Source: a virus. From it: DNA of 61,205 bases. The notes below the pieces were generated by a model. The model was not told where the DNA came from. It searched no databases and saw nothing but the letters and a program-made list of their open reading frames with translations. This document shows positions 13,463-43,432 of this stretch, one piece after another; the first letter of the stretch is position 1, and each line of letters starts with the position of its first letter. Both the position numbers and the translations under genes were made by a program. The DNA lies in IMG/VR virus record IMGVR_UViG_3300034106_005682, positions 1 to 61,205 of that record; one strand, 5' to 3'.

Positions 13463-14074
13463 ATGAAGAGTCTTGTACAAATATTAGTAATTTTGGGGTT
13501 CGTTTATATTACTTTCGGACATAAAAAAAATCAGAATAATTTTATATCTGATGTTTCAACCACAAAAGAAAGTAACCCATATGCTAAATTAAAAAAGGTA
13601 GTTTACAAAGTTAAAGGTTTGGGTGATGTAAGTAATTATACACTTAACCAAACTGCGAGTACCATAGAGAGTTTTTATGGTTTCACTACCATAGTTGAAC
13701 ATAATGTTGAAATTAATCCGAAAATGTTTATCAAGAACACTGATGATATCTTAAATGCTTCAGTTTGTTTAGAAAATCTGAATTCATACACAGAAAAAAC
13801 AATTTATGTAACCAACAAAGAGTTATGGGCTTTAGGTAGATATGTCAATGGTTTAGCTTATCATGAAGGTAATTCAGTAATTGTAAGTACAAGAGCAACT
13901 GATATTACTGAAACAATAAAACACGAGATTGGACATACTTTGGGTTTAAATCATTGTGATGATAAAACTTGTGTTATGGCATCAGAAAATGACAATTACG
14001 AAACAGGTAAATTTTGTAATAAATGTAAAAACCATTTAATCGTTAGATTCAATATTAAAAAAAATAAACTATGA
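13463..14074 (+). CDS. archaemetzincin-type zinc metalloprotease, membrane-anchored or secreted
   Basis: 203 residues. The N-terminus (SLVQILVILGFVYITFG) is a membrane anchor or uncleaved signal. The zinc site HEIGHTLGLNHC continues into DDKTCVM and then CNKC, which fits the archaemetzincin signature HExxHxxGxxHCx4CxM...CxxC exactly. The active-site Glu is in HEIGH and the Met-turn follows. The enzyme would cut peptides outside the cytoplasm. The family is known from archaea, some bacteria and vertebrates; I do not know of it in phages. The stop overlaps the next ATG. Confidence 0.85.
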   Translation: MKSLVQILVILGFVYITFGHKKNQNNFISDVSTTKESNPYAKLKKVVYKVKGLGDVSNYTLNQTASTIESFYGFTTIVEHNVEINPKMFIKNTDDILNASVCLENLNSYTEKTIYVTNKELWALGRYVNGLAYHEGNSVIVSTRATDITETIKHEIGHTLGLNHCDDKTCVMASENDNYETGKFCNKCKNHLIVRFNIKKNKL

Positions 14075-14448
14075 ATAACCCCAAAGAAAAATTAAGACAA
14101 TTTTATATTACAAATGGTATAGTTGAGACATCCAAAGTGACAAGGTTATCCTATCAACGAATTATAGATGAACTAAATTTACCATACAAAAAATTTGAAG
14201 ACATACAATTTACACCCCATCCTGTAAGTGGTGTAAGAAGTGTAACTATGTTTGAAAATGGTTATGGTGCCTCTGTAGTATCACATCCAATGTCATATGG
14301 TGGAAAAATGGGTTTATATGAATTGGCGGTACTTGACAAAAATGGTGAATTAACTTATGATACACCAATAACTGATGATGTGATAGGTTATCTCACACCT
14401 GAACAAGTAACAGAAAAATTAATTGAAATACAAGATTTAAAAAATTAA
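14071..14448 (+). CDS. hypothetical protein
   Basis: 125 residues, soluble; its ATGA overlap with the metalloprotease stop indicates coupling. Features: QFYITNGIVETSKVTRLSYQ at the start, a central HPVSGVRSVTMFENGYGASVV segment and a helical C-terminus. I do not recognise a domain with a known function. Confidence 0.6.
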   Translation: MNNPKEKLRQFYITNGIVETSKVTRLSYQRIIDELNLPYKKFEDIQFTPHPVSGVRSVTMFENGYGASVVSHPMSYGGKMGLYELAVLDKNGELTYDTPITDDVIGYLTPEQVTEKLIEIQDLKN

Positions 14449-14452
14449 AATT

Positions 14453-14725
14453 ATGCCAACCTTTTATCAAGATGTAGAAGCTGAAGTAGATATTGATGTT
14501 GAAGAATTTGTTGACTCATGTTCAGCAAGAGAAATCGAAAAACTAATTCGTTATTTGGTTGAGGAGGGAAATTTACCAAAAACCTTAACCACTTATACCC
14601 AAACACAAAATCTATCACTAAATGATACTATGTGGTACGAAACAACTGAAAAAATTAGAGGTAATCGACTTAGTTTGACCACTGAGGAAATAGAAATAAT
14701 CGAAAATATTGCAAAACGATTTTAA
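14453..14725 (+). CDS. small acidic hypothetical protein
   Basis: 90 residues: an acidic N-terminus (QDVEAEVDIDVEEFVDSC) followed by helices including REIEKLIRYLVEEG. It starts 4 bp after the preceding stop in the same short-gene operon. No family recognised. Confidence 0.6.
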   Translation: MPTFYQDVEAEVDIDVEEFVDSCSAREIEKLIRYLVEEGNLPKTLTTYTQTQNLSLNDTMWYETTEKIRGNRLSLTTEEIEIIENIAKRF

Positions 14726-14727
14726 TT

Positions 14728-14904
14728 ATGTATATTATTGTAAAACACATCAAAACAGACCATAACACAACTCTACCAGTTGTACTAGTCGACACGCAAT
14801 GTGAAGTGTTAGAGTTTGAAGCTATTGAAGAAGCTGAAAAAATGAAAAATCTTTTTGAAACTAATTCTGACTCAGGTTACAAATATGAAGTAAAAAAGAT
14901 TTGA
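14728..14904 (+). CDS. small hypothetical protein
   Basis: 58 residues from the ATG at 14728, two bases after the previous stop. It begins MYIIVKHIKTDHNTTLPVVL, continues with an acidic helix (EFEAIEEAEKMKNLFE) and ends YKYEVKKI. The layout resembles small single-domain beta-alpha-beta phage proteins. It fits the operon by spacing and codon use. Confidence 0.55.
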   Translation: MYIIVKHIKTDHNTTLPVVLVDTQCEVLEFEAIEEAEKMKNLFETNSDSGYKYEVKKI

Positions 14905-14964
14905 TTCTTCTTGACAATCCAAAAACAATCACTTAAGTTTTAAAACACAATTAAACGAAACGAT

Positions 14965-16362
14965 ATGAACTTCATTGATGCCTTACAATCAGAGGACACC
15001 TACACAGAAAACGGAATGGTAACTAATTCTTCATCTTTGAATGAATGTGTGAATCTATTCTTCACAATTGGTGCTATGAGAAAACAAGATAAGGAACGAC
15101 TTATCTCGACATTCTCGAAAGCATTCAATGAGAATCCGTTATCAGCATTGAAAATCTTATTTTGGGTTAGAGATGTAAGAGGTGGAGCAGGTGAAAGACA
15201 AATCTTCCGTGATATCATCAAATATCTTGCGGAGAACCATCCAAGTGTTGTTCAAAAGAACATCCAAGCAATACCACACTTTGGTAGATGGGATGACCTT
15301 TCAGTTCTTTTTGGTACCAAGTTGGAAGCTGAGGCAACCAGAATGTTTGTAAGTGGTCTTATTGTAGAAAATGGACTATGTGCAAAATGGATACCAAGAA
15401 AAGGTGTTATATTCAATGTAATTAGAAAGGCTTTGAATACTACTCCTAAAGACCTTCGTAAGTTATTAGTGAATATTTCCAACACTGTTGAGCAAAAAAT
15501 GTGTTCAAACCAATGGACTAATATTGAGTATGCAAAAACTCCATCATTAGCTATGGGTAGATACACAAAAGCTTTTGCAAAACACGATAACACTGGATTT
15601 ACTGAGTATTTAGAAAAACTAAAGAAAGGAGAAACTAAGGTTAATGCTGGTGCTGTTTATCCTTACAATATTGTTCAAACAATGGAACAAGGTAGTTGGG
15701 AATTAGCAAACGAGCAATGGAAATCTTTACCAAACTTTATGGAAGGTACAACTGAAAGAATTTTACCTGTGGTTGATGTGTCAGGGTCAATGAGTTCAAA
15801 AGTTTCTGGTAGTATTAGTTGTTTAGATGTTGCAGTTTCTTTAGGGTTGTATATCTCAGAAAGAAATGAAGGTGAATTCAAGGATTCTTTTATTACTTTC
15901 TCGGAGTCACCAAAACTAGAAAAAGTTTCAGGAACACTTAAAGAACGCTACTACGAAATGATAGCTACTGATTGGGGTATGAGTACTAATTTAGAAAAAG
16001 TATTTCAGCTTATTCTTAATCAAGCCATCAAACACAGTGTATCACCTGAAGATATGCCTTCTAAGATATTGATTATGTCTGATATGGAATTTAACCAAGC
16101 TTCAAACCACTCTGAAAGTGCGATTCAGATGATAAGAAGAATGTATGAAGAAAGTGGATATTCATTACCACAAGTCATATTTTGGAATATTCAATCAAGG
16201 AATAAAAACTTTCCTGTTAGATGTAATGAATCGGGGACTGCATTAATCTCGGGTCTTTCACCAAGTATTGTAAAGTCAGTATTAGGTGGAAAAGAGATGA
16301 CACCGATATCTATTATGAATGAAACAATCAATTCAGAAAGATATTCAATCATCGAAATATAA
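14965..16362 (+). CDS. Ro60/TROVE-like RNA-binding protein with vWA domain (DUF2828-like)
   Basis: 465 residues. The N-terminal two-thirds is helical and includes motifs typical of this group (LKILFWVRDVRGGAGERQ, IPHFGRWDDL). The C-terminal third is a von Willebrand A domain with the MIDAS motif VVDVSGSMS, and Thr/Asp positions further on (TFSES, DWGMSTN, MSDMEF). Ro60-type proteins are rings that bind misfolded RNAs and Y RNAs; bacterial versions act in rRNA maturation and RNA decay. The downstream 16363-16521 element, closed by a long end-to-end stem, could be its RNA partner. Whether this is a true TROVE protein or the related DUF2828 type is not certain. Confidence 0.78.
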   Translation: MNFIDALQSEDTYTENGMVTNSSSLNECVNLFFTIGAMRKQDKERLISTFSKAFNENPLSALKILFWVRDVRGGAGERQIFRDIIKYLAENHPSVVQKNIQAIPHFGRWDDLSVLFGTKLEAEATRMFVSGLIVENGLCAKWIPRKGVIFNVIRKALNTTPKDLRKLLVNISNTVEQKMCSNQWTNIEYAKTPSLAMGRYTKAFAKHDNTGFTEYLEKLKKGETKVNAGAVYPYNIVQTMEQGSWELANEQWKSLPNFMEGTTERILPVVDVSGSMSSKVSGSISCLDVAVSLGLYISERNEGEFKDSFITFSESPKLEKVSGTLKERYYEMIATDWGMSTNLEKVFQLILNQAIKHSVSPEDMPSKILIMSDMEFNQASNHSESAIQMIRRMYEESGYSLPQVIFWNIQSRNKNFPVRCNESGTALISGLSPSIVKSVLGGKEMTPISIMNETINSERYSIIEI

Positions 16363-16521
16363 GAAAAAGGAAAAATTGGTTCATAAAGTATGATTACTGC
16401 AAACTAAAATACAAACATTGAATCATTTTAATTTCAGATTGAGTTGTTGACTCACTTTTCCAATCGCACGGAAATAAACCTCAACAAAAACCCCATACTG
16501 AAACCAATTTTTCCAATTTTC
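16363..16521 (+). ncRNA. candidate Y-like RNA downstream of the Ro60-like gene
   Basis: Starts right after the stop codon of the Ro60-like gene. Ends pair as GGAAAAATTGGTT (16369-16381) with AACCAATTTTTCC (16502-16514), a perfect 13-bp stem extended outward by GAAAA/TTTTC across a small internal loop, and inward by AGTATG/CATACT. Between lies a ~110-nt mainly single-stranded region. Long paired ends with a big internal loop next to a Ro gene is the layout of Y RNAs. No protein-coding frame is seen. Confidence 0.5.
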
Positions 16522-16557
16522 TTTTAAAATTGATTTAATAACTAATTATAGTACAAA

Positions 16558-16613
16558 GGATAGATTCAGCAATCTTTAAAAATCAAATTTGTAAATTGAC
16601 CAAAAAACTATCC
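16558..16613 (+). other. stem-closed RNA element 1 with TTCAGCAA
   Basis: GGATAG (16558-16563) pairs with CTATCC (16608-16613) around a 44-nt AT-rich loop. TTCAGCAA follows the left arm. A second element with the same layout lies at 16632-16684. No gene is seen between 16363 and 16785. Confidence 0.35.
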
Positions 16614-16631
16614 TGACAATTTAGGTTATAA

Positions 16632-16684
16632 AGAATGAGTTCAGCAAAATATATAAGAACGCAAACCTTAAAAAAAATCATTCT
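16632..16684 (+). other. stem-closed RNA element 2 with TTCAGCAA
   Basis: AGAATG (16632-16637) pairs with CATTCT (16679-16684); TTCAGCAA again follows the left arm. It differs in stem sequence from element 1, so the pairing looks kept while the sequence has changed. Confidence 0.35.
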
Positions 16685-16731
16685 GAGACCATTTTTTTTC
16701 ATTTATATTCTGGAATTAAAAAATAAAATCT

Positions 16732-16739
16732 TATCTTTG
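16732..16739 (+). promoter_or_regulatory. Bacteroidota-type promoter -7 box
   Basis: TATCTTTG matches TAnnTTTG, the Bacteroidota housekeeping -7 element; a weak -33 (TCTG) lies ~20 nt before. It is 46 bp before the DUF4294 gene. Confidence 0.55.
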
Positions 16740-16785
16740 ATACATAATCAAAAGGAAATTATTTAACAAACAAAAAAAATAGAAA

Positions 16786-17400
16786 ATGAAAAGAACAATC
16801 TTAATCAGTTTAGGTCTAATTTTGACTTCTTTGGTTGCGAAAGAGGTTTCAGCTCAATCAACACCAAAAACAAATGAAATAGTAGTAAGAGTTACAACTT
16901 ATAATGGTGAAAGTTTACCAACTATTGTCACACCTGAGGTAAAGGTAATCAGTACTAGATATTTCAAAAATCCTGAGGACAACAAAAAATTTAGAGCATT
17001 CAAATATAATGCTTCAGTTGTAAGACCATATGCTATCGAAGCGATATCTCTTTATCGTGAAATCACTAAGGACTTTGGTGATATGAAGAAAAAAGACAAA
17101 AAGAAATACACAAGGAAACTACAAAAAGAATATACATCAAAATATAAAGATAAACTTGTAGACTTATCCAAGGAACAAGGTTTTGTTCTTATAAAAATGA
17201 TTGAAAGAGAGTTGGACACACCATTTAATGATGTAATAACTGAAATCAGAGGTGGGTGGGAAGCCGCAAAATGGTCTGTAACAGGTGCTTTCTTTGGATA
17301 TAATTTAAAGAAAGGTTACAATCCAAAAGATGATAAATTATTAGAAATAGTGTTAAAATCTTTTGATATTACTTACACCAAGAATACAATTAATCTTTAA
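16786..17400 (+). CDS. DUF4294-family protein with signal peptide
   Basis: 204 residues. The N-terminus (ILISLGLILTSLVAKEVSAQ) is a Sec signal peptide with an A-Q cleavage site typical of flavobacteria. The mature region shows the DUF4294 pattern: KVISTRYFKNPEDNKKFR, YNASVVRPYA, KKKDKKKYTRKLQKEY, QGFVLIKMIEREL, GGWEAAKWSV and FGYNLKKGYNP. DUF4294 is a Bacteroidota protein family of unknown function, so this is probably a host-derived gene. It has its own host-type promoter. Confidence 0.82.
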   Translation: MKRTILISLGLILTSLVAKEVSAQSTPKTNEIVVRVTTYNGESLPTIVTPEVKVISTRYFKNPEDNKKFRAFKYNASVVRPYAIEAISLYREITKDFGDMKKKDKKKYTRKLQKEYTSKYKDKLVDLSKEQGFVLIKMIERELDTPFNDVITEIRGGWEAAKWSVTGAFFGYNLKKGYNPKDDKLLEIVLKSFDITYTKNTINL

Positions 17401-17433
17401 CTTTTTTTGAAAAACTTTATATTTATAATAAAA

Positions 17434-17541
17434 ATGAAAAATTTCATCAAACATATTAACATTTCAGTTCAGCCGCAATTTAGTAATTGTTGGTCGAAGC
17501 CGAATATTGGCTATGGTTTGGGAAATTCGAAAGATTTGTAA
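17434..17541 (+). CDS. possible 35-residue protein
   Basis: ATG follows a TATATTTATA box by 5 nt (ATAAAA spacer region) and opens a 35-codon ORF, MKNFIKHINISVQPQFSN..., ending GLGNSKDL, before a strong terminator. The box and terminator suggest a genuine small transcript; whether the peptide is made is unclear. Confidence 0.35.
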   Translation: MKNFIKHINISVQPQFSNCWSKPNIGYGLGNSKDL

Positions 17542-17568
17542 TTGTTTAATAATTTTTTGATAGTAGAG

Positions 17569-17599
17569 CCCTGAACCAACAAAGTTCAGGGTTTTTTTT
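17569..17599 (+). terminator. intrinsic terminator before the tRNA array
   Basis: CCCTGAAC / GTTCAGGG perfect 8-bp stem followed by eight T. Confidence 0.88.
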
Positions 17600-17627
17600 G
17601 TTCATTGACATCGTGGTAAAATAATCC

Positions 17628-17700
17628 TCCCTCTTGGTATAATGGTTGATTACATCAGATTTTGATTCTGAGGATGGTGGTTCGATTCCATCAGGGGGAA
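17628..17700 (+). tRNA. tRNA-Gln (TTG)
   Basis: Acceptor TCCCTCT/AGGGGGA, anticodon arm TCAGA-TTTTGAT-TCTGA with TTG at 34-36, T arm with TTCGATT. CCA is not encoded. It lies upstream of the main array promoter. Confidence 0.92.
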
Positions 17701-17748
17701 CATTCTAAGGTGGTGGGATTTGACCACTTTAAAAAAATTACAAAGATA

Positions 17749-17778
17749 TTTGGAAATTAAAAAAAAATGGTAACTTTG
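17749..17778 (+). promoter_or_regulatory. Bacteroidota-type promoter for the tRNA array
   Basis: TTTG (17749-17752), 18-nt spacer, TAACTTTG (17771-17778). Predicted start is near 17783, exactly where the first structured RNA begins. Confidence 0.7.
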
Positions 17779-17782
17779 TAGA

Positions 17783-17848
17783 AGAGTAAGGAAAGGTCGT
17801 AGGTAGCACTGTCCACAACCAGCCTTGAACGCGGTGGATACTTACTCT
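17783..17848 (+). ncRNA. structured small RNA, first element of the array transcript
   Basis: Closing 8-bp stem AGAGTAAG / CTTACTCT. Inside, AAGG can pair with CCTT while TCCAC pairs with GTGGA, which would form a pseudoknot. It lacks a tRNA anticodon arm and TTCGA loop. The block CAGCCTTGAACGCGGTGGA at its 3' side nearly repeats in the tRNA-like element at 18612. Confidence 0.5.
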
Positions 17849-17857
17849 AAACTTTAT

Positions 17858-17933
17858 GGTGTTGAAGCTAACTTAGTAGAAGCGCAGGTCTGAAAAACCT
17901 GATGAGTTGGAGCGTAACCAACCAATACCACCA
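17858..17933 (+). tRNA. tRNA-Phe (GAA)
   Basis: Acceptor GGTGTTG/CAATACC, discriminator A and encoded CCA; anticodon arm CAGGT-CTGAAAA-ACCTG. The T loop is AGCGTAA rather than TTCGAxx. Confidence 0.9.
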
Positions 17934-17941
17934 AACTATAT

Positions 17942-18016
17942 GTGGTATGTACCCCAATTGGTAGAGGGGCATTATTGTGGATGATGTATGTGTGGGTTCG
18001 AGTCCCATCATACCAC
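17942..18016 (+). tRNA. tRNA-His (GTG)
   Basis: Acceptor TGGTATG/CATACCA with the extra G-1 opposite C73, the His identity pair; anticodon arm CATTA-TTGTGGA-TGATG. Confidence 0.92.
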
Positions 18017-18026
18017 CAAACAATTA

Positions 18027-18109
18027 GGAAGGAGACCGGATGGACGAGGGGATTGTCTTGAAAACAATTGGGCGTAACTGCTTTGTGGGTTCGATTCCCA
18101 CTTCTTCCT
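18027..18109 (+). tRNA. tRNA-Ser (TGA)
   Basis: Acceptor GGAAGGA/TTCTTCC, anticodon arm ATTGT-CTTGAAA-ACAAT, long variable arm as in class II tRNAs, T loop TTCGATT. Confidence 0.9.
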
Positions 18110-18119
18110 CACTTTAAAT

Positions 18120-18191
18120 GTCTCTATGGTGAAAAGGCAATCACACTTGACTGTTAATCAAGTATTCCTGGTTCGAGTCCAGGTGGGGACG
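18120..18191 (+). tRNA. tRNA-Asn (GTT)
   Basis: Acceptor GTCTCTA/TGGGGAC, anticodon arm CTTGA-CTGTTAA-TCAAG, discriminator G. Confidence 0.92.
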
Positions 18192-18196
18192 CAAAT

Positions 18197-18270
18197 TGTC
18201 TCTTAGCTCAATGGATTAGAGTACCTAAATACGGATTAGGTGGTTGAGGGTTCAAGTCCTTCAGAGACAA
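18197..18270 (+). tRNA. tRNA-Arg (ACG)
   Basis: Acceptor TGTCTCT/AGAGACA, anticodon arm CCTAA-ATACGGA-TTAGG. A34 would need editing to inosine by a tRNA adenosine deaminase. Confidence 0.92.
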
Positions 18271-18274
18271 CTAT

Positions 18275-18359
18275 GGAGAATAATATGACGAGGAGTCATC
18301 ACTGCCTGCTAAGCATGTGGCACCAATTATGGTGTGGGGTTCGAGACCTCTGTTCTCCG
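18275..18359 (+). tRNA. tRNA-Ser (GCT)
   Basis: Acceptor GGAGAAT/GTTCTCC, anticodon loop CTGCTAA, long variable arm with CACCA-ATTA-TGGTG. The anticodon stem is imperfect (TGC/GCA core). Confidence 0.85.
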
Positions 18360-18374
18360 CTAAAAAATTAAAAT

Positions 18375-18524
18375 ATGTTATTATTAATTGGTCTTTTGTT
18401 TTTGATAATTGGAATAATATTCTTAGTTTTGTCTTACTTCAAACGAAACTCAGATTTCTTCATCATAGGATTTATTTTTCTAATTGTTCTTTTGTTTGGA
18501 TTTATTTATGGTTTGATAGTTTAA
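18375..18524 (+). CDS. 49-residue two-helix membrane protein
   Basis: ATG at 18375 after an A-rich leader opens MLLLIGLLFLIIGIIFLVLS, a charged turn (YFKRNSD) and a second hydrophobic helix (IIGFIFLIVLLFGFIYG). It lies between two tRNAs with only 15 and 3 bp to spare. No family recognised. Confidence 0.6.
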   Translation: MLLLIGLLFLIIGIIFLVLSYFKRNSDFFIIGFIFLIVLLFGFIYGLIV

Positions 18525-18611: not shown

Positions 18612-18689
18612 TAGGAAAGTATCCCCTCAGCCTTATACGCCGTGGAAAGGGTAATTGGTTACATATGGGTTCGAACCCCATCTTTCCTA
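18612..18689 (+). tRNA. tRNA-like element of unassigned identity
   Basis: Acceptor (T)AGGAAAG/CTTTCCT(A) and T arm ATGGG-TTCGAAC-CCCAT are perfect, but the middle does not fold into normal D and anticodon arms. Instead it holds CAGCCTTATACGCCGTGGA, nearly the same as a block in the 17783 RNA. It could be a degenerate tRNA or a tRNA mimic. Confidence 0.5.
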
Positions 18690-26566: not shown

Positions 26567-26647
26567 AGTCAGGTGGCAGAATTGGAGCTGCCAAGATGAG
26601 GTACACATCTGCGTTTATCGTCACAAGTTCGAATCCTGTCCTGACTA
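26567..26647 (+). tRNA. tRNA-like element A (possible Tyr GTA)
   Basis: Acceptor AGTCAGG/CCTGACT and D stem GCAG/CTGC are good. Anticodon-arm-like AGATG-AGGTACA-CATCT puts GTA at 34-36 but with G, not T, at position 33. The T stem ACAAG/CCTGT has a mismatch. Its acceptor and T arm are nearly identical to element B at 27317, so one derives from the other. Confidence 0.5.
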
Positions 26648-27316: not shown

Positions 27317-27423
27317 AGTCAGGTGGCGGAATGGTAGACGCTATATGTTTTGGAAGGAGATAGGAATAGAACCTACCCTAAACCAGATAAAAGATTTTAC
27401 AGGTTCGAATCCTGTCCTGACTA
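27317..27423 (+). tRNA. tRNA-like element B with extended central hairpin (Leu-like ends)
   Basis: Acceptor AGTCAGG/CCTGACT, D arm GGCGGAATGGTAGACGC as in tRNA-Leu, and T arm ACAGG-TTCGAAT-CCTGT are intact. Between them lie ~57 nt instead of an anticodon plus variable arm: TATATGTTTTGG pairs imperfectly with CCTAAACCAGATA, capped by TAGG-AATAGAA-CCTA. A TAG could serve as anticodon, but position 33 is A. Pseudo-tRNA, intron-bearing tRNA or tRNA mimic. Confidence 0.5.
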
Positions 27424-37951: not shown

Positions 37952-37977
37952 TATGATAAGAACAAAAACTTCCGATG

Positions 37978-38355
37978 TGGAGGTATAGGGAGTCGAACCC
38001 TTTCCTGTCCATCTTAACTATTAAGGACTACATGTTTAGGACAACATTATTCGCAGTGTTCCGAGCTATTTGATTTTTATACTCCCAAAACCAACAAAAT
38101 CGGCCAATTCATTTTTAGGGATGAGAATCGGTTAGACAACCCTATAGTGCTCCTGTTCCTGAGTTAATGCACCCCGACTCGAAAGTGGTAACCTATTGAC
38201 TAGGCTACTACTGCTTCTTCAGCACGGATTAAACCTACTGCAGAAAGTTTGTTGATAACGTTGCCGTGTATCGTTTCAAACCAGTTTAACGGACTTAGTT
38301 CAGGTCCGACATGCCCCGAATAACTAACAACGTCAGTCGATACCAGATTACCCCC
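37978..38355 (-). ncRNA. ssrA: transfer-messenger RNA (tmRNA)
   Basis: 378 nt on the minus strand. The 5' end GGGGGTA pairs with TACCTCC at the 3' end, followed by A and CA; the T arm is GGG-TTCGACT-CCC with ATCTGGTATCGACTG near the 5' end, as in tmRNAs. The tag frame on the minus strand (38265 down to 38200) reads 21 codons starting GNVINKLS and ending RAEEAVVA, then TAG. Pseudoknot-like GC-rich segments follow. The product rescues stalled ribosomes and marks the peptide for proteolysis. The exact resume codon is not certain. Confidence 0.88.
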
Positions 38356-41198: not shown

Positions 41199-41222
41199 AA
41201 AAGGGACTATTCTGTCCCTTTT
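41199..41222. terminator. bidirectional intrinsic terminator
   Basis: AAAAGGGAC / GTCCCTTTT stem between converging genes. Confidence 0.82.
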
Positions 41223-43432
41223 TTCTTTTTTGTCTTTTTGACTTCTTTATTTTTAAAAATAATTTTTTCTTCCTCGACAGTTAAAACATATTCTTCATTT
41301 TCTACAATAACTCCATTAAGAACTTCTTCGGAAACAAAATCCTCAATCTTATCTTGGATTGCGCGTTTAATGGGTCTTGCACCATATGTTTCATCAAATC
41401 CAACTTTAGATATAAGTTCCAACACCTTTTCATCACAACTGACATTATAATTTAACCCTTTCAATCTAGTTGTTAATTTATCTATTTCAAGTTTGACAAT
41501 TTGTTTTACTTCATCTTCTTTCAAAGTGTTGAAAACTATAATCTCATCAATACGATTTAAAAATTCAGGGGCAAAGAATTTTTGTAATTCTTTTTTTAAC
41601 ATATCTCTTTTTTGTTCCTCTTCGATATAAGAATTACTCGAAGTTTTGAAACCAACACCAGTACCGAAATCTTGAAATTTCTTAACCCCAAGATTAGATG
41701 TCATAATGATAACACAATTCTTAAAATTTATTTTTCTACCCAAACCATCTGTTAAATGACCATCATCTAATACTTGTAATAAAGTTGAGAATACATCCTT
41801 GTTTGCTTTTTCTATTTCATCAAATAAGATTACAGAATAAGGTTTATTTTTAACTTGTTCGGTTAATTGTCCCCCTTCATCATAACCAACATAACCTGGA
41901 GGTGACCCAATTAATCTTGATATTGAATGTTTTTCTTGGAATTCTGACATGTCAACACGGATTAGGTTTTCTTCACTGCCAAATATTTCTTTGGCTAATT
42001 GTTTGGCTAAATATGTTTTACCTACACCTGTTGAACCCAAGAAGATAAATGAACCGATTGGTTTATTGGGGTCTTTGATTCCCAATCTATTTCTTCTAAT
42101 ACTCTTAGCTATTTTGGAAACAGCTTCAGATTGTCCAATAACCTTTGAAGATAGGTTTGAATCCAAAGAAGTAAGTTTATTAGTTTCGTCTGAGTTCATT
42201 TTGGACACAGGTATTTTGGTCATATTTGATACCACTTCATAAACTAATTCAACACTTACTTCTTTTTTCTTAACCAATAAATCCTTTTCGAACTTTTTCT
42301 TTTCTTCTTCCAATTTGTCCAATATCTTTGTTTCCTTATCTCTAAGGTCAGCGGCTAATTCGTAGTTTTGGGTTTTAACAACCTCTATTTTCTGTTGTTT
42401 TATATCTTGTGCTTTTTGTTTTAGTTCATCAATAATCTGAGGCATCTTAATTTCTACCTGACTTCTTGCTCCAACTTCATCAATAATATCAAATGCTTTA
42501 TCTGGAAATTCTCTATCTGTAATATATCTTTCTGCCAAATCAACACACAACTTCAATACCTCGTCAGTATAACTTACCTTGTGGTAATTTTCATATTTGT
42601 CTTTAACATTAATGAGGATTTGTAATGTTTCTTCTTTTGTTGAGGGGTCAACGATGACTTTTTGGAAACGTCTTTCTAAGGCGCCATCTTTTTCAAAATT
42701 CTTTCTATATTCATCCAAAGTTGTTGCACCAATACATTGGATTTCCCCTCTTGCTAAGGCTGGTTTGAATATATTTGAGGCATCCAATGAACCTGATGAA
42801 TTACCCGCACCAACAATTTGATGAATTTCATCGATAAACAAAATGATATTTGGGGCAGCTTGTAGTTCTTCTATAATCACCTTCATTCTTTCCTCAAATT
42901 GACCACGATATTTTGTTCCTGCGACAATTGAGGTCATATCTAAAGACATTATTCTTTTGTCCATCAAATTTCTTGGACAATCTCCATTCAATATTTTCAA
43001 GGCTAAACCTTCTACTATAGCGGTTTTTCCACAATTGTGTGATACAATTCCATTTGAGATATACTTATTTTCATTATCTAATACTTCTAAATCAAAAGTA
43101 TTATGTATTCCAATTTCTTCATATAGAATAACTTCACTTAATTCATTGTTTTCACACCACACTAATTCTCCCTCTGTAATATTACCAAGATTTAACCAAT
43201 AAGAACCATTGTCAAATTTGGTGAAAGGGTTCAAACTACTATTGTCGACTTCAACTAAATGGTCAATTGAACCTTCTAAAACCAACCCATTAGATAATGT
43301 AATTCTCACACATTCTTTATCGGCCTTTTTAAATAATTTACCTATTGGTTTAAATCCTAATGGTGTTTTAATGTTATATGTCCCGCCATTATTTTCAACC
43401 ATCTTGAAAAACTCTTCTATTTTAATTTTCAT
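41207..43432 (-). CDS. clpC: C-intein + ClpC-type AAA+ ATPase (C-terminal fragment)
   Basis: 741 residues. Residues 1-133 are a C-intein: a block-B-like SIDHLV, block F/G (NTFDLEVLDNENKYISNG) and the end IVSHN, followed by extein Cys134. The extein (608 residues) resumes in the D1 Walker A (CGKTAIVEG) and holds Walker B (ILFIDEIHQ), a UVR-type motif in the middle region (YELAADLRDKE), the D2 Walker A (GSTGVGKTYLAK), Walker B (VILFDEIEKA) and a C-terminal D2 domain. UVR motif and length point to ClpC. After splicing to the 44642 product it would be an unfoldase working with host ClpP. The Clp N-domain is absent. Confidence 0.9.
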   Translation of the reverse strand: MKIKIEEFFKMVENNGGTYNIKTPLGFKPIGKLFKKADKECVRITLSNGLVLEGSIDHLVEVDNSSLNPFTKFDNGSYWLNLGNITEGELVWCENNELSEVILYEEIGIHNTFDLEVLDNENKYISNGIVSHNCGKTAIVEGLALKILNGDCPRNLMDKRIMSLDMTSIVAGTKYRGQFEERMKVIIEELQAAPNIILFIDEIHQIVGAGNSSGSLDASNIFKPALARGEIQCIGATTLDEYRKNFEKDGALERRFQKVIVDPSTKEETLQILINVKDKYENYHKVSYTDEVLKLCVDLAERYITDREFPDKAFDIIDEVGARSQVEIKMPQIIDELKQKAQDIKQQKIEVVKTQNYELAADLRDKETKILDKLEEEKKKFEKDLLVKKKEVSVELVYEVVSNMTKIPVSKMNSDETNKLTSLDSNLSSKVIGQSEAVSKIAKSIRRNRLGIKDPNKPIGSFIFLGSTGVGKTYLAKQLAKEIFGSEENLIRVDMSEFQEKHSISRLIGSPPGYVGYDEGGQLTEQVKNKPYSVILFDEIEKANKDVFSTLLQVLDDGHLTDGLGRKINFKNCVIIMTSNLGVKKFQDFGTGVGFKTSSNSYIEEEQKRDMLKKELQKFFAPEFLNRIDEIIVFNTLKEDEVKQIVKLEIDKLTTRLKGLNYNVSCDEKVLELISKVGFDETYGARPIKRAIQDKIEDFVSEEVLNGVIVENEEYVLTVEEEKIIFKNKEVKKTKKKKGTE
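43034..43432 (-). other. C-terminal part of split intein (133 residues)
   Basis: Covers the intein blocks B, F and G; ends SHN before Cys. Typical splits fall between B and F, so this is an unusually large C-part. Confidence 0.85.

What the first reader, a model, noticed from the sequence alone, without database searches (positions are those of the whole stretch)
14965..16521. Ro60-like protein followed by a Y-like RNA
A TROVE/vWA-type protein is followed at once by a ~150-nt element whose two ends form a ~19-bp interrupted stem around a large loop, the layout of Y RNAs, which in bacteria are often encoded beside the Ro gene. A phage Ro-Y RNA particle could steer host RNA degradation or tRNA and rRNA quality control. 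The neighbouring tRNA array and its tRNA-like elements (18612, 26567, 27317) are further possible ligands, since some bacterial Y RNAs mimic tRNA.
Basis: partly seen in the sequence, partly recalled or inferred. Interest (0 to 1): 0.72.

Follow-up and report, generated by a model that had tools for sequence, protein, structure and literature searches.

The report
Phage Ro60-like protein with Y-like RNAs
A phage gene makes a protein folded like Ro60, a ring that handles faulty RNA in animals and some bacteria, and beside it lie three small structured RNAs of a recurring type, absent from the RNA-family library, found next to this gene in most of the phages, bacteria and archaea sampled, which look like its dedicated RNA partners.

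Summary
The finding holds and is larger than described. ORF 14965-16362 is a DUF2828/DUF7788 protein (PHROG 850). It does not match the Pfam Ro60 family (TROVE), but its confident AlphaFold2 model (pLDDT 91) matches Ro60 full-length: the seven best PDB hits are all Ro60 (E about 1e-8), including Ro-RNA complexes. The 150-nt element folds far better than chance (z -5) and covaries in relatives. It is the first of three tandem copies: E1 16369-16514, E2 16557-16614, E3 16632-16684. They share one rule: a 6-7 bp helix, (A/U)GCAA starting exactly 11 nt inward from its outer base, and an unpaired G after the 3' strand. Near this gene the rule gives 225 sense hits at 11 nt, against 2-13 at any other spacing and 5 antisense. 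One- or two-helix forms occur at 161 of 194 sampled loci, in phages, bacteria and archaea, up to eight per locus. Some copies elsewhere enclose a permuted tRNA or a cloverleaf whose acceptor stem is replaced by the helix. No Rfam family covers them, except partial sub-threshold YrlA matches. Best reading: a second Ro/Y-type RNP family with its own RNA signature. Binding and function are inferred.

The parts
14965..16362 (+). Ro60-like ring protein, DUF2828 (HEAT-type) + DUF7788 (vWA with complete MIDAS D271xS273xS275, T341, D373)
   Evidence: Pfam/PHROG; invariant MIDAS in alignments; AF2 pLDDT 91.4, pTM 0.91; Foldseek PDB top 7 all Ro60
16363..16521 (+).
   Evidence: z -5.0; covariation; rule-based scan
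16369..16381 (+). E1 outer stem, 5' arm GGAAAAATTGGTT
16502..16514 (+). E1 outer stem, 3' arm AACCAATTTTTCC
16387..16392 (+). E1 inner helix, 5' strand AGTATG
   Evidence: U-A to A-U change on both sides
16398..16402 (+). E1 motif TGCAA, 11 nt from the outer base of the inner helix
16444..16487 (+). E1 internal two-stem hairpin domain (TTTCC AATCGCAC GGAAA at its tip); in relatives L035, L036, L038, L040 preceded by a tRNA T-arm and an acceptor-like hairpin
16494..16501 (+). E1 inner helix 3' strand CATACT plus internal-loop GA
16557..16563 (+). Element E2 helix, 5' strand AGGATAG
16568..16572 (+). E2 motif AGCAA (context ATTCAGCAAT)
16608..16615 (+). E2 helix 3' strand CTATCCT plus conserved unpaired G
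16632..16638 (+). Element E3 helix, 5' strand AGAATGA
16643..16647 (+). E3 motif AGCAA (context GTTCAGCAAA)
16678..16685 (+). E3 helix 3' strand TCATTCT plus conserved unpaired G

Best explanation
The locus encodes a Ro60-type RNP of a family separate from the classical TROVE/Y RNA one. The DUF2828/DUF7788 protein folds as a helical-repeat domain joined to a vWA domain, as in Ro60 (shown by model and fold search). Three tandem noncoding RNAs (E1-E3) are its dedicated partners (inferred from strict genetic linkage). Each is presumably gripped at one end by the short helix, the (A/U)GCAA placed 11 nt inward and the unpaired 3' G; this fixed geometry looks like one protein-binding site (inferred). 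The variable part beyond the grip is the effector domain: plain loops in E2 and E3, a branched stem domain in E1, and in other members a permuted tRNA or a tRNA cloverleaf. By analogy with Rsr/YrlA, the RNA covers or gates the ring and tethers it to other machines, steering decay or repair of structured RNA, above all tRNA, during infection (inferred, not tested).
For: Fold: AF2 pLDDT 91.4/pTM 0.91; Foldseek PDB hits 1-7 all Ro60 (1yvp, 2i91, 9nep, 9nfa, 9nf8), E 1.5e-8 to 1e-7, TM 0.55-0.65, next hits lone vWA domains at E 4e-3. RNA rule: (A/U)GCAA exactly 11 nt from the helix base and G after it, 225 sense near-gene hits at 11 nt versus 2-13 at other spacings and 5 antisense. Position: strict elements cluster within 750 bp upstream or 500 bp downstream of the gene, none inside it; in a complete 150-kb Enterococcus phage the scan finds only three, all beside the gene. 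Covariation: the 7th pair, not required by the search, pairs in 98.9% of 263 distinct elements versus 60.6% after shuffling. Two-helix form: 65 sense versus 1 antisense. Separate transcription unit suggested in Enterococcus phage: promoter-like site 11/12, terminator-like site, then a separate promoter-like site for the gene. tRNA-like content: 45 of 307 elements hold a T-loop, 6.2 expected; ten enclose Rfam tRNA hits. Phages and hosts sampled carry no TROVE gene, one marginal archaeal case apart.
Against: No binding, transcription or function data. Protein resemblance to Ro60 is structural only (11-13% identity); profile-profile comparison with three TROVE proteins is weak (11% probability) and Pfam TROVE does not match. 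The RNAs lack the Ro-binding sequence described for classical Y RNAs (recalled, not read here). 33 of 194 loci showed neither form (some are truncated contigs; KVP40 and Aeromonas Ahp1 among annotated phages). In the window no promoter-like site near E1-E3 exceeds chance. The window's own elements have no tRNA-like domain.
Confidence: 0.78

Rival explanations
1. The elements are cis-acting leaders or trailers of the gene: the protein binds its own mRNA to control its synthesis or stability, and there is no free Y-like RNA.
For: They lie next to the gene on the same strand; upstream in 181 of 186 cases in host genomes; E1 starts directly after the stop codon.
Against: They lie downstream in most viral copies (82 of 121) and upstream in hosts; up to eight tandem copies at a locus; in Enterococcus phage UTI-EfS3 the array has its own promoter-like and terminator-like sites before the gene's promoter-like site; tRNA-like domains inside suit a stable separate RNA.
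Confidence: 0.12
2. The elements are structured RNA unrelated to the protein in function, e.g. terminators, processing sites or decayed tRNA genes in a tRNA-rich region.
For: Many of these phages have tRNA arrays next door; some copies look like tRNA remnants.
Against: Fixed 11-nt spacing and G are unexplained; no terminator-like site by them in the window; the scan finds only the gene-linked three in a whole 150-kb phage genome that has tRNAs elsewhere; helices covary with loops free to change.
Confidence: 0.05
3. They are DNA elements (recombination or protein-binding sites of the attC kind), not RNA.
For: Tandem arrays of imperfect inverted repeats in one orientation.
Against: Only the orientation that reads on the gene's strand occurs (225 versus 5; 65 versus 1); G-U pairs are tolerated; tRNA cloverleaves are enclosed.
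Confidence: 0.03

Closest known systems
Bacterial Rsr (Ro60 orthologue, TROVE) with YrlA/Y RNA, often beside rtcBA (RYPER with PNPase in Deinococcus radiodurans)
   Same: Ro60 fold with vWA domain; RNA genes beside the protein gene; 5' and 3' ends pair; some RNAs carry a permuted tRNA (T arm, joined acceptor, D arm) as in YrlA; in Listeria phage A511 an RtcB-type ligase lies close by.
   Different: Protein is DUF2828/DUF7788, no Pfam TROVE match; the RNA signature is the 11-nt helix-(A/U)GCAA-G rule, which the TROVE loci and two TROVE-linked YrlA loci examined lack; many tandem copies; a second tRNA-like form keeps D, anticodon and T arms in normal order with the helix in place of the acceptor stem.
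Animal Ro60 and Y RNAs
   Same: Full-length fold match to Ro60 solved with RNAs, including misfolded RNA.
   Different: 11-13% sequence identity; different RNA sequences.
'Ro-like RNA binding protein' of actinobacteriophages (e.g. LeBron gp53; Snenia gp54)
   Same: Snenia gp54 is in the same protein family as the window protein; LeBron gp53 carries the same name (family not tested here), inhibits growth when overexpressed (PMC13148394), and a Ro-like gene is missing from the shorter L2 phage Underpass, so it is dispensable there (PMC12714340).
   Different: In the passages read, no RNA partner is described for them; here Snenia has such elements beside gp54 in L031.
Rfam RF02553 YrlA
   Same: Sub-threshold matches overlap elements of Enterococcus (47.8 bits) and Mycobacterium (39.3 bits) phages.
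   Different: No match for the window elements; the model also rings in 133 of 199 Bacillota genomes, so weak hits mean little.

Membership tests
Ro60/Rsr (TROVE) protein family | Match to Pfam TROVE (PF05731) | tested here: not met
   No match in the window record or in 12 phages; a true bacterial TROVE protein rings as positive control
Ro60/Rsr (TROVE) protein family | HEAT-type ring closed by a vWA domain | tested here: met
   AF2 model and full-length Foldseek matches to Ro60 only; ring closure itself not measured from coordinates
Ro60/Rsr (TROVE) protein family | vWA MIDAS residues | tested here: met
   DxSxS, T and D invariant in 74 sequences
Ro60/Rsr (TROVE) protein family | Detectable sequence-profile homology to TROVE proteins | tested here: inconclusive
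   hhalign probability 11%, collinear over the vWA part
Ro60/Rsr (TROVE) protein family | Binds Y RNA on the ring and misfolded RNA ends in the cavity | not testable with these tools
   needs binding assay or structure
Bacterial Y RNAs (YrlA class) | Encoded beside the Ro-like gene | tested here: met
Bacterial Y RNAs (YrlA class) | 5' and 3' ends pair in a conserved stem | tested here: met
Bacterial Y RNAs (YrlA class) | Same Ro-binding sequence as TROVE-linked Y RNAs | tested here: not met
   Elements share the (A/U)GCAA 11-nt rule, which finds nothing in TROVE loci L217-L220 and YrlA loci L200, L202; the classical motif itself was recalled, not read
Bacterial Y RNAs (YrlA class) | tRNA-like domain in at least one RNA of the set | tested here: inconclusive
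   Not in the window; T-arm in E1 of close relatives L035, L036, L038, L040; present in part of the family
Rfam YrlA RF02553 | Score above gathering threshold (69 bits) | tested here: not met
Intrinsic terminators | G+C-rich stem followed by U-run | tested here: not met
   none found at 16300-16790

The most novel reading that the evidence does not exclude
DUF2828/DUF7788 proteins with their (A/U)GCAA RNAs are a separate, cross-domain family of Ro-like RNPs, spread by phages, in which a common grip presents interchangeable effector RNAs, including tRNA cloverleaves whose acceptor stem has been replaced by the grip; in phages these act as tRNA look-alikes that steer tRNA decay and repair or soak up tRNA-cleaving host defences.
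Probability: 0.35. Interest if true: 0.88.

Novelty: new variant of a known kind. Interest (0 to 1): 0.78.

Why it matters
DUF2828/DUF7788 relatives of this protein occur in 681 of 50,697 phage records and in many bacterial genomes, with no established function that I could find. A Ro60 fold plus dedicated RNAs gives them a testable one, shows that Ro/Y-type particles extend beyond TROVE proteins, and supplies a simple sequence rule to find more. RNAs that carry a tRNA cloverleaf in place of a Y RNA loop offer a direct way to ask what the ring and its RNA do to tRNA, in lab phages such as mycobacteriophages on M. smegmatis. Why phages carry Ro-like proteins is open.

Tried and rejected
PDB sequence search found no useful relative, with phmmer or profile. 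Rfam at relaxed cut-off gave only chance hits for 16300-16700. First-pass motif scans mixed real and stray hits; the 11-nt/G rule removed most. Rfam YrlA sub-threshold hits looked like proof of tRNA mimicry until a control showed the model rings in 133 of 199 Bacillota genomes, probably because neighbouring tRNAs imitate a permuted tRNA; I rely on nesting inside an element instead. Blastn of the element against phages gave only weak partial matches. Megablast of 14000-18400 found no relative in named phages. The idea that the tRNA-like elements at 18612, 26567 and 27317 are Y-like ligands was dropped: none has the signature. The papers most likely to describe phage Y RNAs (Chen 2014 RNA; Sim and Wolin reviews) are not held, so prior description of some of these RNAs cannot be excluded; the held library has four papers with DUF2828, judged from titles and abstract openings as plant work unrelated to this.

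Full report
THE OBSERVATION. ORF 14965-16362 is followed, without a gap, by a sequence that folds at -35.7 kcal/mol, 5 standard deviations below dinucleotide shuffles. The 13-bp stem 16369-16381/16502-16514 is perfect and lies within the described ~19-bp interrupted stem. Two viral contigs (L001, L007) carry the same protein and the same downstream sequence, and L002, L003, L004 and L005 carry close variants. In ten relatives the E1 structure is kept: 95% of cells paired, nine pairs with changes on both sides, 23 such cells against 7.0 in shuffles and at most 5 in slid controls. The 13-bp outer stem hardly varies in this group and is therefore no covariation evidence by itself there.

THE PROTEIN. 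Pfam gives DUF2828 and DUF7788, PHROG 850 'RNA-binding protein'; Pfam TROVE does not match. The MIDAS residues D271, S273, S275, T341 and D373 are invariant in 74 sequences. AlphaFold2 gives pLDDT 91.4, pTM 0.91. Foldseek against the PDB puts seven Ro60 chains first (1yvp with RNA, 2i91 with misfolded RNA, 9nep, 9nfa, 9nf8; E 1.5e-8 to 1e-7; TM 0.55-0.65; 11-13% identity); the next hit is a lone vWA domain at 4e-3. Sequence-profile comparison with three TROVE proteins is weak. The fold is therefore Ro60-like; common descent is likely but not shown by sequence.

THE RNA FAMILY. Comparing flanks of relatives showed one pattern. With 194 loci (viral contigs, annotated phages, bacterial and archaeal genomes) the rule is: helix of 6-7 bp; (A/U)GCAA starting exactly 11 nt inward from the helix's outer base; unpaired G after the 3' strand. 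Near the gene, with at least 7 pairs, there are 225 sense hits at 11 nt, 2-13 at each other distance from 7 to 15, and 5 antisense. A stricter version clusters within 750 bp upstream or 500 bp downstream of the gene and never inside it. The search demands six pairs, so those cannot prove pairing; the seventh pair is not demanded and is formed in 98.9% of 263 distinct elements, against 60.6% when partners are shuffled (maximum 66.9%), while the eighth falls to 57.8% against 39.5%. Loci are not all independent of each other; the 263 are distinct sequences. Consensus of 288 distinct copies: A-[AAGRYRC]-NNAC-AGCAAW ... [GYRYCUU]-G. In the complete 150-kb genome of Enterococcus phage UTI-EfS3 the rule finds three sites, all beside the gene; in 240 kb sampled from Oscillibacter, two beside the gene and one stray. 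In the window it finds three beside the gene and one weak stray.

TWO FORMS. E2 and E3 have one helix. E1 has the same grip on top of an outer stem, separated by an internal loop (A-rich on the 5' side in many, GA/GU/GAU on the 3' side). This two-helix form was searched for separately: 65 sense hits in 56 loci, one antisense; outer stems have quite different, complementary sequences in different lineages. Together, 161 of 194 loci have an element (140 one-helix, plus 21 more). Some of the others are truncated contigs; KVP40 and Aeromonas phage Ahp1 have none by these rules.

tRNA-LIKE CONTENT. 45 of 307 elements contain a T-loop consensus, 6.2 expected. By a simple D-arm pattern seven have the T arm before the D arm (permuted, YrlA-like: L031, L032 twice, L112, L125, L155 twice) and six have D before T. 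In Clostridia genomes ten elements enclose an Rfam tRNA match of 38-53 bits (L139, L141 twice, L148, L154, L177 twice, L186, L188, L190), and ARAGORN calls a tRNA in most of them (not in L186 and in only one of the two of L141). Several match only model positions 4-67 or 7-64, i.e. without acceptor stem, and the element's helix stands in its place. Close relatives of the window phage (L035, L036, L038, L040) have a T arm and an acceptor-like hairpin in E1; the window's E1 and L037 lack it. A control matters: the Rfam YrlA model rings in 133 of 199 Bacillota genomes at up to 41 bits, so weak YrlA hits are not evidence on their own.

TRANSCRIPTION. In Enterococcus phage UTI-EfS3 the array of three lies between a promoter-like site (TTGACA-17-TATTAT, 11 of 12) and a terminator-like hairpin, and the gene has its own promoter-like site after it. 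This favours separate noncoding RNAs over a leader, though consensus matches are not proof. In the window nothing exceeds chance for sigma-70-type sites, and Bacteroidota-type promoters are not covered by that scan.

MECHANISM. Shown: fold, linkage, geometry, covariation, tRNA-like inserts. Inferred: the helix plus (A/U)GCAA plus G is the protein-binding grip; the rest is an effector domain; the particle sorts structured RNA, likely tRNA, for decay or repair, as Rsr/Y RNA with PNPase does in Deinococcus (PMC7790460, PMC8394870 describe the known system). Supporting context: RtcB-type ligase near the gene in Listeria phage A511 and an RNA ligase gene near it in Erwinia phage pEa_SNUABM_47; tRNA arrays beside it in many phages. 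Overexpressed 'Ro-like' gp53 of LeBron inhibits mycobacterial growth (PMC13148394); L2 phage Underpass lacks such a gene (PMC12714340).

NOVELTY. The kind (Ro/Y RNP, tRNA mimicry) is known, also in phages (Chen et al. 2014 reported Y RNAs near Ro60 in bacteria and phages; recalled from its abstract, paper not held). What I did not find described: that DUF2828/DUF7788 proteins carry their own class of tandem RNAs with this 11-nt signature, and the cloverleaf-in-helix form. TROVE loci tested do not share the signature, and in 20 host genomes and 12 phages with DUF2828 only one marginal TROVE match occurs. Verdict: new variant of a known kind.

Noticed in passing
window 37975-38355 (-) and 41207-43432 (-): The phage encodes a tmRNA (Rfam 93 bits) and, 3 kb away, a ClpA/ClpB-type AAA+ unfoldase (AAA_2, AAA_lid_9, ClpB_D2-small), the kind of enzyme that degrades tmRNA-tagged proteins.
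   Followed up: no
window 27317-27423 (+): A 107-nt tRNA-like sequence (Rfam tRNA 39 bits, not called by ARAGORN) with an unusually long middle; shares acceptor and T-arm sequence with the tRNA-Tyr at 26567.
   Followed up: partly
window 17781-17850 (+): An 8-bp stem AGAGTAAG/CTTACTCT around about 50 nt in the tRNA array, called by neither ARAGORN nor Rfam; possibly a degenerate tRNA or another small RNA.
   Followed up: no
L024 4356-4598: Cronobacter phage S13: two adjacent 'tRNAs' of 113-121 nt with long inserts in the anticodon region that share ACGCAAACTGA(C/T)AAGTTTGTATTCAGC; possible further Y-like variants inside ordinary tRNAs.
   Followed up: partly
L027 1900-2450: Vibrio phage PhiImVa-1: several ACAGCAA elements in a row, and what looks like a permuted tRNA split by a further 115-nt tRNA-like gene annotated as a suppressor tRNA.
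   Followed up: partly
L141 156-730: A ROOL RNA (310 bits) and a tRNA array directly upstream of the tandem elements and the DUF2828 gene.
   Followed up: no
L133, L134: Lokiarchaeota and Woesearchaeota contigs carry the same gene with elements beside it, in L133 with a T-loop inside.
   Followed up: partly
window 16786-17400 (+): DUF4294 protein directly after the RNA elements; no PHROG match.
   Followed up: no
window 13463-14074 (+): Small protein with archaemetzincin/matrixin-type zinc peptidase motif shortly before the Ro-like gene.
   Followed up: no
Rfam RF02553 (search): The YrlA model gives many sub-threshold hits in bacterial genomes, probably because two adjacent tRNAs look like a permuted tRNA.
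   Followed up: partly
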